NCBI GenBank assembly: GCA_020080175.1
Contig: JAGHQL010000003.1
Span: forward strand, 62,001-126,000
Origin: Glutinoglossum americanum
Taxonomy: Eukaryota; Ascomycota; Geoglossomycetes; Geoglossales; Geoglossaceae
Direction: 5' to 3'
Length of the DNA: 64,000 bases
The notes under the pieces are model-generated. The model did no database searches, was not told the origin of the DNA, and saw nothing but the letters and a program-made list of their open reading frames with translations. Positions 58,133-62,650 of this stretch are shown one piece after another. The position numbers were made by a program, and so were the translations under genes. The stretch's first letter is position 1, and each line of letters begins with the position of its first letter.

Positions 58133-59576
58133 ATGTCCGAGGTTCTCCCAACGTCCAACGGCTCGTCCCACGGCGGCGTCTTCGGCCACTTCCGTACTCT
58201 GTCTGCGGCCAGCTCCCGCCACCAGCGTCGGCCCACGTTCCCCCTGGCTCACTCTGCGCGCCGCAAGCCCAGACGGTATGATTGATGGTTGCGATGAGAA
58301 TTGGTGTTGTGGATACCCTCCCATCTGACTTTGCGGTGGTAGGTGGCCGCTTGCTTTGAGGTTCATCAAGGGTGCTATTCATACACGTGAGTTTTAATCA
58401 AGCCAGAGGGCGAGGCCGGATGCGAATGTTGACTTGTCGCACCCAGAGATTATTCTGCCGGTCTTCCTCCATGCGCTCTTCACCGTGTTGGTTGTTTATC
58501 TGGATAAGGGTTTGAAGAAGAACATCGGGTTGCCGAGCAGCATTGTAACGACTCTTTGTAGCAACTCACTGCGTATATCTTTTTCCGCTGACGCGTTCAA
58601 GATCCCTAGTCTGTCAATCGTTGTCGGTTTGATGCTGGTAAAGCCCCTTAGAATGCCTGTCAACTGCGCAATAATATACATGGAATTCTGAATTTCCATG
58701 TCCCTAGGTTTTCCGAAATGGAACCTCATACGAACGCTGGTGGACTGGCCGCTCCCATCTCACCACCATATCGACTTCCATACGTAACTTAACCCGCTCG
58801 TTCCTCTGTTGCTTTTACAAAACGGGCGAGACCCCCACCCCTTCAGAAAGGGCAGACACAGAACGCGTCGTCCGGATCCTCATCGCTATTCTCTACGCTA
58901 TCAAGAACCACCTGCGCGCCGAATGGGGAGTGGCGATCCAGCCAGGCACGGCATTGGGCCAGCATGGGGTTCCGACTCAACAGTCTGAGTATTCGGAGCT
59001 CTTACCTGTTGGATTGAAGAGCGGTGAGACAGACGGGCTAGGGTTACCGCTAGAGTTGGCATTCTTCGTCGAGAAGTACATCAGGAATGGCCTTGATAGA
59101 GGCTGGTTCCACCCGCCGCAGGCGAGCCAAATGCAGATGCAATTGAATAACATAGTCGACGCCTATGGAAGGATGGAGACTATTAGGCTAACACCGATAC
59201 CAGTAGCGCATTTGTGAGGCCACCCGTTTTACTGTAGCCGGAGGTTTCCTCTGGTGTTTAGGCTAAAACCCACAAACTAACACAAACCGATAGGATCCAC
59301 CAAAAGCAAGTCCTTGCTCTCTTCGGCTGCATACTTCCATTCGCCATGGTCGACGAGATGGGCTGGTTGGCGGTCCCAATCGTCTGTATTGTGACGTTCA
59401 CGCTCTATGGCATCGAGGGTATCGGGTCGCAGTTGGAGGATCCGTTTGGCTACGACAAGAACGACATTAAGATGGATGCTATTGTGCAGGATTCGCGGCA
59501 GGAAGTCATGGTGATGCTGGAGGAGTGGAAGAAGGGAGGGGAGATGTTCATCATCCCTCAGGCCGCCGTACATTGA
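58133..59576 (+). CDS. Bestrophin-like (UPF0187) anion channel family protein
   Basis: Six exons give about 370 residues. Joins: KPR(R)|WPLALRFIKGAIHT, then QIILPVFLHALFTVLVVYLD, GLPSSI|IPSLSIVVGLML, then VFRNGTSYERWWTGRSHLT and PVAH(L)|IHQKQVLALFG. The family core is the pore-lining helix block SLSIVVGLMLVFRNGTSYxR(W/F)W and the later LPFAMVDEMGWLAVPIVCIV, TLYGIEGIGSQLEDPFG and YDKNDIKMD. These match the fungal/bacterial bestrophin-like membrane proteins, thought to pass chloride or other anions. About four to five membrane segments are visible. The short N-terminal leader is basic and Ser-rich. The first two exon joins are the least certain. Confidence 0.85.
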
Positions 59577-60346: not shown

Positions 60347-61707
60347 CTACTTCCCTTCCGTTGCTGCGGTTGCCGTAGCCTCTGACGTCTCTGTTGTAGT
60401 TGTCGTGGTGGCATTGCCGAATCCCTGGTGGTCACTGTGCTTTTTGTAATAGTAATTTTGGGGAAGAGGCTTCAGGCGTGGGGTCAGCATCTCCAGGACT
60501 CGTTCGAGGACCTTATTGGTCGATGCTTGGTTGCTGCCGTCACGGTTCCAGATCATGATGAGGTGTGAATTAAAGCGTGCTGAAATTGTAACTCCGCAAA
60601 TATCGTCGCCTGAGAAGACGAGGTAGGTTGGTTAAGCTGGGTTCTTAGGCGCAAAGGAAAGCAAAGCGGGATAGACACGAAATACTAACCTTTCTCGACC
60701 ACCTCCTGAAGTTGTTCTCCAACCACGAGGACAAGTACTTCTAGCCAAAAGGCTTCACTAATGCTCTTGTTGACTCTGAACGTCCAGCATCCCCCAGTAA
60801 TATTTCTTGGATCCTCCCAAATTGGCTTTACACCCTTCTTGAAGAAGTGATAGGAGTCCCGAAGATACATGCGGGAAGGATCCACGTTGTTCAGGATCTC
60901 CCAGAACACCTTGATGGTTGAAACGGTCTCGAGAGGCTTTAGGCGCTCCTCATAAGCATTGGACTTGTCGCCAGTATTGGGTGCGTGCCTGGTATGAGAG
61001 ATTAGTGACACAAAGCTTAACGGAAAAGGGGGAGATGTTTCTGACTTATCACTCCAGAACTGCCAGATATGGCGAAGAGGAAGAGGTCGCATAGTCTTGA
61101 ACATATTTTTTGTGGCATCTGCGCGACTAGGAGAGGTGGTGGACGAGGATGGTGAGAAGTCGGGAGGGGCTTGTACGAGCCCATTGACCGCAAGTGTGGG
61201 ACGCGTAGGCCGGCCAGTCTGCTTCTGCGCCGAAGATTCTTCAGCCATAACGTACCAATCTGAGGTGTACGAAACTGAAGTGTTCTCGGCTGTCAGAACT
61301 TGAGGCTTTTCGAAAGATAAGATGGATGGATCAAGCTCAAGTGCCTTCTCGTTGGCGTATGAAATGGAAAGCTCCTGAGGTCTTTCGAAAGATACGATGG
61401 ACGGATCAAGCTCGAGTGCCTTCCTGTAGGCGCATGGAACGAACGCTTTCCGAGGACTTTCGAAAGATACGATAGATGGATCAAGCTCGAATGCTTTCTG
61501 GTTGGCGTATGAGACGAAAGCTTTCTGGGGCTTTCCGAAAGATACGATGGATGGGTCAAGCTCGAATGCTTTCCCGCAGGCGTGCGGAGCGAGGGATTTC
61601 CGGGGCTTTTCGAAAGATACGATGTATGGGTCAAGCTCGAGTGCTTTACTGCAGGCAAGCCTTTTTGTCCACTCTTGGGCAAGGTTTCGCAGCTGAGAGT
61701 GGTCCAT
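60347..61707 (-). CDS. 4EHP-class eIF4E with N-terminal 25-residue tandem repeats
   Basis: Three exons, joined at FWSD(K)|HAPNTGDKSN and VVEK(G)|DDICGVTIS. The C-terminal ~190 residues form an eIF4E fold: PLRHIWQFWSDK, VSTIKVFWEILNNVDPS, FFKKGVKPIWEDPRN, ITGGCWTFRV, GEQL and LIMIWNRDGSNQ. The Trp of PIWED is kept, while Tyr in KSNAYEERL stands at the usual first cap-stacking Trp; this Tyr is typical of class II (4EHP) proteins, which compete with eIF4E and repress translation. Residues ~18-145 are five in-frame copies of a 25-residue unit, KA(L/F)ELDPSIVSFxxP, not known to me in any eIF4E. A Thr/Ala-rich tail (ATTTTTTETSEATATAAT) ends the protein. The start ATG precedes DHSQLRNLAQEW. Confidence 0.9.
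61313..61687 (-). repeat. Five 75-bp in-frame tandem repeats in the eIF4E gene
   Basis: The anchor TCAAGCTC(G/A)A recurs at 61331, 61406, 61481, 61556 and 61631 on the plus strand, exactly 75 bp apart. The copies differ by substitutions only, with no length change, and each encodes 25 residues with the core ELDPSIVSF. The most conserved half of the unit covers the ELDPSIVSF codons; the other half is freer. Confidence 0.93.
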
Positions 61708-62650
61708 CTTAGCGAATTGAAAAGTGCCAGCGAACGTTTAACGGTGGAAAGAGGGAAAGAATTGAAAAAGATCAAAGGAAAAACTACGTTCCAGCTTATG
61801 CTCGAACGTTGTAGAAAGAACGAATTGAAGGAAAGCCGATACAGAGAAGCGGATGGAAACAAGAAAAGCGAGGTAAGGAATTCATGGATGAGGTCTAGCG
61901 ATTGCGCGAACATGATCGGGTGGCTGGTATCAGGGCAAGAGAGCGTGCTCCCTGAGTGAGGTGTTAATGAGACTTACAAGTTTGTTGTCCCAAAGCGGCT
62001 ACCGCCAGGGATTGTGAGGCCACGCTCCGATCCACGGAAGGAGAGAAAGCACACGATCTTGACTTCGACCTCAACCACTCAAAGCTCAGCCGGGGCAACA
62101 GCAACAGCAACAGCAGCTCGAATGCTGGAGGAAGAGGGAAGGCGGAGGTGGTGGAGGAGAAGGAGGAGGAGGAGGAGGAGGAGGGGGAGGAGGCGAGCGG
62201 CCGGGCAAAGTCCTTTGTAATATATAGGGGATGTGGGGCGTATGTACGTGTATGATTACGGGGATGCGTGATTGTTTCGACGCATGTGGTCGGTGAAGGG
62301 GGTTTTGTGGTGCCGGGACAGTTTCATTGCGGCTCAAACGTTCCAGAATGGCATCGACCCTCGACCCTCGACCCTCTAACCGCCGTCACATCTTGCTGCT
62401 CTTCGCTCGCTTCGCGCTCCACGTCCTGTTGATGCGGGTGCCGCTTCTCTTGTTTCTGGTTGGTGCGTCGTGTGCACGGACCAACCAATTGCTTGCTCTT
62501 ATCGGCAATCGCTTCGAGTCTCTTGGCGCGCACTCTCTGCATTGGGGAAAATTAAAATTCGCTGCCCATGTCGCACAACTCTCCACACCCTCTCAGAATT
62601 CCCCCGCTCGGCGCTCTTCACAACCCCCAGCTCCGCCGTCATCCATACCA
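61708..62650. promoter_or_regulatory. Head-to-head spacer with CAACAG and GGA tracts
   Basis: A 943-bp space between the eIF4E and NOPCHAP1-like start codons. It contains a CAACAG triplet tract (about 62096-62115) and a purine-rich GGA/GGC tract (about 62130-62200). These produce spurious poly-Pro and poly-Arg frames. Confidence 0.5.
62096..62205. repeat. CAACAG tract and GGA-rich low-complexity tract
   Basis: (CAACAG)n is followed by a ~70-bp GGAGGA/GGAGGC run. They lie in a promoter or leader region and are not supported as coding. Confidence 0.65.

What the first reader, a model, noticed from the sequence alone, without database searches (positions are those of the whole stretch)
61313..61687. 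A cap-binding protein carrying five 25-residue tandem repeats
The eIF4E-like gene has an N-terminal extension made of five exact-period (75 bp) copies centred on ELDPSIVSF. Copies differ only by substitutions and keep the ELDPSIVSF core, which suggests selection on the peptide rather than a fresh slippage product. Canonical eIF4E N termini are short and disordered. The repeats could be a docking array that multiplies partner binding on a translational repressor.
Basis: partly seen in the sequence, partly recalled or inferred. Interest (0 to 1): 0.75.

Follow-up and report, generated by a model that had tools for sequence, protein, structure and literature searches.

The report
Repeat-extended fungal cap-binding protein gene
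A fungal gene for an mRNA cap-binding protein has five old 25-amino-acid repeats in frame at its start, perhaps translated as an extra tail; the protein is probably not the repressor type first proposed, and no function of the repeats is shown.

Summary
Five copies of a 75-bp unit lie on the minus strand at 61273-61647, in the frame of an eIF4E-family gene. Copies 1-4 differ only by substitutions; copy 5 has a diverged tail with a probable in-frame 15-nt insertion. Searches found the array once in the 25.8-Mb genome. It is old: pooled pS between copies is 0.33.

It is more likely translated than not. Codon usage fits the eIF4E frame, moderately so against non-ORF sequence, and the upstream ATG follows a strong pyrimidine tract. 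Against this, a consensus splice donor at 61977 could remove the array from the leader. Peptide selection is only suggestive: dN/dS 0.58 overall, 0.31 in the core, permutation P 0.115 and 0.068.

"4EHP-class repressor" is not supported: cap-pocket residues fit fungal F-Class IV, whose tested member rescued yeast lacking eIF4E (PMC11791286). The genome's better 4EHP match is another gene.

Best reading: an old coding minisatellite translated as a mostly tolerated N-terminal extension. Docking is possible but unshown; PAM2 membership was not met.

The parts
61046..61707 (-). Predicted exon 1 of the eIF4E-family gene if ATG 61707 is used: head (20 aa), five-copy array, short linker, N-terminal tail and start of the eIF4E domain
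   Evidence: Open frame of 340 aa from ATG 61707; exon end chosen by reading phase, intron 1 = 60989-61045, weak donor GTCAGA
61273..61647 (-). Array of five 75-bp (25-residue) units, core KA[LF]ELDPSIVSFExP
   Evidence: TRF; units in register; codon usage in frame 0
61258..61299 (-). Diverged tail of copy 5 (VLTAENTSVSYTSD), with a probable in-frame 15-nt insertion (VLTAE)
   Evidence: my alignment; coordinates; TRF array ends at 61308
61246..61248 (-). Internal ATG (MAEESS...), start of a 254-aa form without the extension
   Evidence: F-Class IV is reported without extensions (PMC11791286)
60690..60988 (-). Predicted exon 2, most of the IF4E domain
   Evidence: Pfam PF01652, 138.7 bits on the spliced protein; splice sites by phase
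60347..60609 (-). Predicted exon 3, end of the IF4E domain and Thr/Ala-rich C-terminus
61708..61807 (-). Pyrimidine-rich 100 nt upstream of ATG 61707 (best 25-nt window 92% C+T), possible transcription start region
   Evidence: best window reached by 1.45% of 4,000 random positions; reached by 0 of 38 other ORF starts
61972..61977 (-). Consensus splice donor GTAAGT in the leader or promoter region; with acceptors at 61275 or 61260 it would remove the array, with those at 61924, 61895 or 61784 it would leave ATG 61707 in place
   Evidence: use not shown

Best explanation
The array is an old coding minisatellite. A 75-bp unit was duplicated in tandem (by unequal crossing-over or replication slippage: inferred) at the 5' end of a fungal F-Class IV-like eIF4E gene. 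It is translated from ATG 61707 as a 153-residue N-terminal extension in front of an otherwise complete cap-binding protein of 254 residues. Because the period is a multiple of three, copies can be gained without breaking the frame; because the eIF4E N-terminal tail is dispensable for cap binding in other species (PMC1260017, passages), the extension is tolerated. The cap-binding domain would work as an initiation factor. Shown here: the array, its frame, its age, coding-type codon usage, the cap-pocket residues. Inferred: translation from the upstream ATG, the mechanism of gain, and that the extension is mainly tolerated, with at most weak constraint on the LDPSIVSF core.
For: Frame continuous from ATG 61707 through the array into the IF4E domain. 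Codon-usage score of the array in frame 0 is 0.081, above 74% of 179 real coding windows and reached by 0.2% of 895 wrong-frame windows; each copy is positive in frame 0 and negative in the other two sense frames. No non-ORF window of 125 codons (0 of 162, or 0.25% of 406 with a looser mask) reaches it as best of three frames. ATG 61707 has A at -3 and G at +4 and a strong C+T tract before it. No stop plus the synonymous count is reached by 3.2% of 20,000 random re-placements of the same mutations. Only one locus found in the genome. Two AlphaFold runs without an alignment gave pLDDT 36 and 35, so no fold is indicated.
Against: No transcript, proteome or related-species data. F-Class IV proteins are reported without extensions (PMC11791286). 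The copies are one observation repeated: taken singly, 2.6 to 29% of 1,129 stop-free non-ORF frames of 25 codons score as high as a copy. A GTAAGT donor at 61977, with a CTGAC site at 61296 and acceptors at 61275 and 61260, could splice the array out of the leader. The 20-residue head scores as neither coding nor non-coding (-0.019). Against mere tolerance: core amino acids vary less than the flanks (pN 0.089 against 0.386), and the array is richer in order-promoting residues than the tail after it (0.35 against 0.15).
Confidence: 0.48

Rival explanations
1. The array is not translated: translation starts at the internal ATG 61248 and the repeats lie in a leader intron, a 5' leader or the promoter.
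For: F-Class IV proteins are reported without extensions (PMC11791286). Consensus donor GTAAGT at 61977 and, before the internal ATG, CTGAC at 61296 and acceptors at 61275 and 61260, which would make an intron of about 700 nt. The unit is nearly stop-free in a second sense frame too (1 stop in frame 1), so an open frame alone is weak evidence. The internal ATG has G at -3 and +4.
Against: Codon usage favours frame 0. An intron of about 700 nt would be long beside the two predicted in this gene (57 and 80 nt). No GTNAG donor lies within 61256-61950 (the narrower pattern would have missed both introns of this gene). The C+T tract before the internal ATG is ordinary (8 of 38 other ORF starts reach its value).
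Confidence: 0.28
2. Docking array: the extension is translated and each unit is a short linear motif (core LDPSIVSF) that binds an unknown partner, so that five copies raise avidity.
For: Core nonsynonymous divergence is far below that of the flank (0.089 against 0.386) and dN/dS in the core is 0.31; 10 of 25 unit positions are invariant; the copies are old yet in register.
Against: Permutation P for the core is only 0.068, and core and flank do not differ in N:S (Fisher P 0.21); synonymous divergence is also lower in the core (0.255 against 0.428). 4E-BP pattern 0 and strict PAM2 0 in the array. No Pfam family reaches its cut-off on the array.
Confidence: 0.18
3. The units are PAM2-like motifs that bind the MLLE domain of poly(A)-binding protein, bridging cap and tail as in Leishmania eIF4E4.
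For: 5 of 5 copies have L-x-P-x4-F with the PAM2 spacing, and a P three residues after F, the FxxP spacing of PAM2L (PMC9249222). L.P....[FW] occurs 13 times in 36,178 residues of this genome's ORFs, about 0.9% per 25-aa unit. The genome has an MLLE match with KITGMLLE. Leishmania eIF4E4 binds PABP1 by a PAM2 in its N-terminal extension (PMC6379680).
Against: The consensus LNxxAxEFxP is missed at N (D in 5 of 5), A (I in 5 of 5), E (S in 5 of 5) and FxP (FxxP in 5 of 5). Better PAM2 matches in this genome keep A. The Pfam PAM2 model did not hit the array or its unit peptides. The Ustilago Pab1 MLLE did not bind PAM2L. Found after the fact among several motifs compared.
Confidence: 0.04
4. Assembly artefact or very recent slippage.
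For: Tandem arrays are error-prone in assemblies (general knowledge).
Against: Copies differ at 14-31 of 75 nt, so they can be told apart and are not recent.
Confidence: 0.01

Closest known systems
Fungal F-Class IV eIF4E (Hernandez et al. 2024, PMC11791286)
   Same: W56Y, R/K112C, K/R162L, with W102, E103, R157 and W166 kept
   Different: F-Class IV is described as lacking amino-acid extensions; this gene has a 153-residue in-frame extension if ATG 61707 is used
4EHP / Class II eIF4E
   Same: W56Y and a hydrophobic residue at 162; human 4EHP is the top PDB match, 110.3 bits, closely followed by eIF4E type 3 (4b6u), 108.9 bits
   Different: R112C; the genome has another gene (C284) scoring 156.6 bits to human 4EHP
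Leishmania eIF4E4
   Same: N-terminally extended eIF4E; its extension is disordered and binds PABP1 (PMC6379680, abstract and passages)
   Different: Its PAM2 is canonical (MNPNATEFMP); no such motif here, and it is a different lineage
Intragenic coding repeats of fungi
   Same: Repeat-bearing fungal proteins, such as Ustilago Rsp3 and Podospora hnwd genes (PMC5923269, PMC2873952; search listing only)
   Different: Those are an effector and recognition proteins; here it is a translation-factor gene

Membership tests
F-Class IV eIF4E | W56 to Y | tested here: met
   Y80 of the 254-aa form aligns with the wheat eIF4E Trp
F-Class IV eIF4E | R/K112 to C | tested here: met
   GGCW against GGKW
F-Class IV eIF4E | K/R162 to L | tested here: met
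   L184, four residues before W188
F-Class IV eIF4E | Clade position in a tree of fungal eIF4Es | not testable with these tools
   No fungal protein set available
F-Class IV eIF4E | No extensions (reported property, not used to define the class) | tested here: inconclusive
   An extension is present if ATG 61707 is used and the array is not spliced out
4EHP / Class II | W56Y/F and R/K162 I/V/L | tested here: met
   Y and L; the same changes are also part of the F-Class IV signature
4EHP / Class II | Best 4EHP match of the genome | tested here: not met
   C284 gene 156.6 bits against 110.3 bits for this one
M-Class III (eIF4E3) | W43 kept, W56 to C/Y | tested here: met
   W62 and Y80; but the fungal survey found no Class III in fungi
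PAM2 motif | Consensus LNxxAxEFxP or Pfam PF07145 | tested here: not met
   0 in the array by strict pattern; PF07145 gave 2 hits elsewhere, both below its cut-off; none in the 8 unit peptides
TPR | 34-residue helical repeat over the Pfam cut-off | tested here: not met
   Period 25; TPR_1 22.1 bits against a cut-off of 27.8, 11 residues matched
4E-BP / eIF4G motif | Y-x4-L-hydrophobic (pattern recalled) | tested here: not met
   0 in the array

The most novel reading that the evidence does not exclude
A fungal initiation factor carries five MLLE-binding (PAM2-like) units on its own N-terminus, so that the cap-binding protein holds several poly(A)-binding proteins directly, a multivalent cap-to-tail bridge without eIF4G; copy number could tune it between strains.
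Probability: 0.04. Interest if true: 0.75.

Novelty: new variant of a known kind. Interest (0 to 1): 0.28.

Why it matters
If translated, it is a repeat-bearing N-terminal extension in an eIF4E class reported to have none (PMC11791286), in a core translation factor. It would allow a direct test of whether eIF4E tails are free to grow or recruit partners. If not translated, it is an ordinary minisatellite in front of a housekeeping-type gene. I saw no report of tandem repeats in an eIF4E N-terminus in the held library (searches, listings of the best rows only, plus the passages and sections named in the full report); subscription journals are mostly not held.

Tried and rejected
Dispersed copies or a parent gene of the unit in the same genome: none found by DNA or protein. 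Relatives in IMG/VR with the 340-aa ORF and in GTDB contigs with the array alone: none. TPR: resemblance is 11 residues, below Pfam cut-offs; a composite unit matches designed TPR proteins in the PDB (E down to 4e-7, by summing many short matches), which I treat as chance because the period is 25. ABC-transporter match in the PDB: E 0.17-1.5, treated as chance. PAM2: examined at length, not met. Kinship of the second 25-residue array (C260) with this one: hhalign probability 0.3%, rejected. Structure: both AlphaFold runs had pLDDT about 35 and were neither interpreted nor searched. Higher-order 150-bp duplication: the tree with cherries 1+3 and 2+4 needs 50 steps, the best tree 49, so it is neither shown nor excluded. 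NCBIfam: no match.

Full report
What is there. The window is G000:C222:62001-126000 of an unnamed 25.8-Mb genome in 317 contigs; gene content and introns look like a filamentous ascomycete (my judgement, no test). On the minus strand an open frame of 340 aa runs from ATG 61707 to 60685. Residues 21-145 are five units of 25 residues, exactly 25 apart. TRF finds the array at 61308-61647. Predicted exons are 61707-61046, 60988-60690 and 60609-60347, giving 407 aa from the upstream ATG or 254 aa from the internal ATG at 61248. Intron 1 has a weak donor (GTCAGA) and was chosen by reading phase.

Is the array coding? A codon-usage score was trained on 40 ORFs of at least 300 aa (24,939 codons) from 21 stretches of this genome. 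Frame 0 of the array scores 0.081, above 74% of 179 real coding windows; 0.2% of 895 wrong-frame windows reach it. Single copies score 0.050, 0.095, 0.021, 0.106 and 0.133; the shares of 4,885 wrong-frame windows reaching them are 4.5, 1.8, 7.9, 1.5 and 0.7%. The real windows come from ORFs that also trained the model. A second control with sequence outside ORFs is less favourable: 16, 6.5, 29, 4.7 and 2.6% of 1,129 stop-free 25-codon frames reach the five copy scores, and since the copies are related they count as little more than one observation. For 125 codons, 0 of 162 strand-windows (0.25% of 406 with a looser mask) reach 0.081 as best of three frames. So coding is favoured, moderately.

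Start and splicing. The 100 nt before ATG 61707 are 65% C+T with a best 25-nt window of 92%; among 38 other ORF starts the median is 50%, 3 reach 65% and none reaches 92% (the median of 39 had included this gene). Two further ATGs lie upstream at 61913 and 61885. My first donor scan used a pattern that would have missed both introns of this gene (GTCAGA, GTTAGT) and stopped at 61950. The wider scan finds no GTNAG in 61256-61950 but a consensus GTAAGT at 61977. Joined to acceptors at 61275 or 61260, behind CTGAC at 61296, it would remove the array in an intron of about 700 nt and leave the internal ATG. Joined to 61784 it would remove both upstream ATGs and leave ATG 61707 first. Sequence alone cannot decide. 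Because of this and I lowered my own best reading from 0.55 to 0.48 and docking from 0.20 to 0.18, raised 'not translated' from 0.20 to 0.28, and lowered interest from 0.30 to 0.28.

Selection. Pooled over the ten pairs, pS is 0.333 and pN 0.218 (dN/dS 0.58); in codons 1-14 0.255 and 0.089 (0.31); in codons 15-25 0.428 and 0.386 (0.85). Random re-placement of the same 54 changes from the consensus gives as many synonymous changes in 11.5% (whole), 6.8% (core) and 41% (flank) of 5,000 trials each; 77% of whole-unit trials create a stop. With 20,000 trials, no stop and at least the observed synonymous count occur together in 3.2%. This assumes a star tree. Core and flank N:S do not differ significantly (Fisher P 0.21 on rounded counts). 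The synonymous divergence shows that the array is not recent; gene conversion would make it older still.

What the gene is. Pfam IF4E scores 138.7 bits on the spliced protein. Hernandez et al. (PMC11791286; parts 1-3 of 4 of the text read) place ascomycete proteins with W56Y, R/K112C and K/R162L in F-Class IV. Here these positions are Y80, C135 and L184 of the 254-aa form; W125, E126, R179 and W188 are kept (mapping by eye). The genome has three eIF4E-family loci among the matches: this one, C251 (class I by W at 56, read by eye, and K at 112) and C284, which scores 156.6 bits to human 4EHP against 110.3 for this protein. The paper reports that a F-Class IV protein (Uncinocarpus reesii) rescued yeast lacking eIF4E, less efficiently than the control, while the two Class II proteins tested did not; expression levels were not compared. 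So a repressor role should not be assumed. The residues alone also satisfy the Class II definition and the older Class III one, so the assignment rests on R112C and on the presence of C284; no tree of fungal proteins could be made. A study of Magnaporthe eIF4E3 (PMC8244596, passages) reports that deletion reduces growth and conidiation; I could not establish that it is the same class.

Origin and context. The searches found the array only here by DNA and protein (the tool calls its counts lower bounds). Among 251,545 unmasked bases examined (not a random sample), five loci have tandem periods of 75 or more: this one, three that read as 33-residue ankyrin-like repeats by eye, and a second 25-residue array on C260. 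The C260 units (core LRPSAFNWAD) are not detectably related.

Partner motifs. The unit core has L-x-P-x4-F in 5 of 5 copies, the spacing of L and F in PAM2 (LNxxAxEFxP; PMC7356810, passages). Chance per unit for L.P....[FW] is about 0.9% from 13 hits in 36,178 residues; that background includes two loci fetched with the PAM2 model. It was noticed after several motifs had been compared. The conserved A is I in 5 of 5 copies, E is S, N is D, and the P is one residue too far, a spacing reported for PAM2L, which the Ustilago Pab1 MLLE did not bind (PMC9249222, passages; also PMC4466420, passages). Better PAM2 matches in this genome keep A: LNVEAPEF, LNVKAPTFTP and FHPDAPAFTP on C61, LKPDAPEFVP on C261; the two places scored are below Pfam's cut-off as well (17.1 and 15.4 against 20 bits). 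PAM2 membership is therefore not met. The ELM pattern used comes from memory.

Verdict. A real, old, in-frame repeat array at the start of an F-Class IV-like eIF4E gene, more likely than not translated; ordinary in mechanism, unusual in place. The repressor label is not supported and docking is open. Relatives, the decisive evidence, were out of reach: no fungal genome collection was available here. PMC7139794 (passages) states that it leaves Pezizomycotina out.

Noticed in passing
L025:2638-2868 (G000:C260), minus strand: A second 25-residue tandem array, three acidic units with core ELLRPSAFNWADD (EVLRPSAFNWADE in one), resembling a PAM2w register (L-x-P-x-A-x-x-W), in a 236-aa ORF; the search found only this locus.
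   Followed up: partly
L032 (G000:C61, match at 59454-59486): A long open frame (2110 aa) with several PAM2-like motifs (LNVEAPEF, LNVKAPTFTP, FHPDAPAFTP, LSADAKPF), perhaps a multi-PAM2 scaffold; not identified by family.
   Followed up: partly
L033 (G000:C261, match at 144997-145026): A near-canonical PAM2 (LKPDAPEFVP) in an ORF that begins like the end of an ABC-transporter ATPase, by eye.
   Followed up: no
L011, L017, L021: Arrays of 99-bp period, ankyrin-like by eye; two of them with 12-14 copies.
   Followed up: no
window 61293-61913 (-): A second, overlapping open frame of 206 aa (ATG 61913) runs through most of the array; its codon usage is not coding-like over the array.
   Followed up: partly
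window 62127-62193: GGA-rich repeat (about 22 triplets) upstream of this gene.
   Followed up: no
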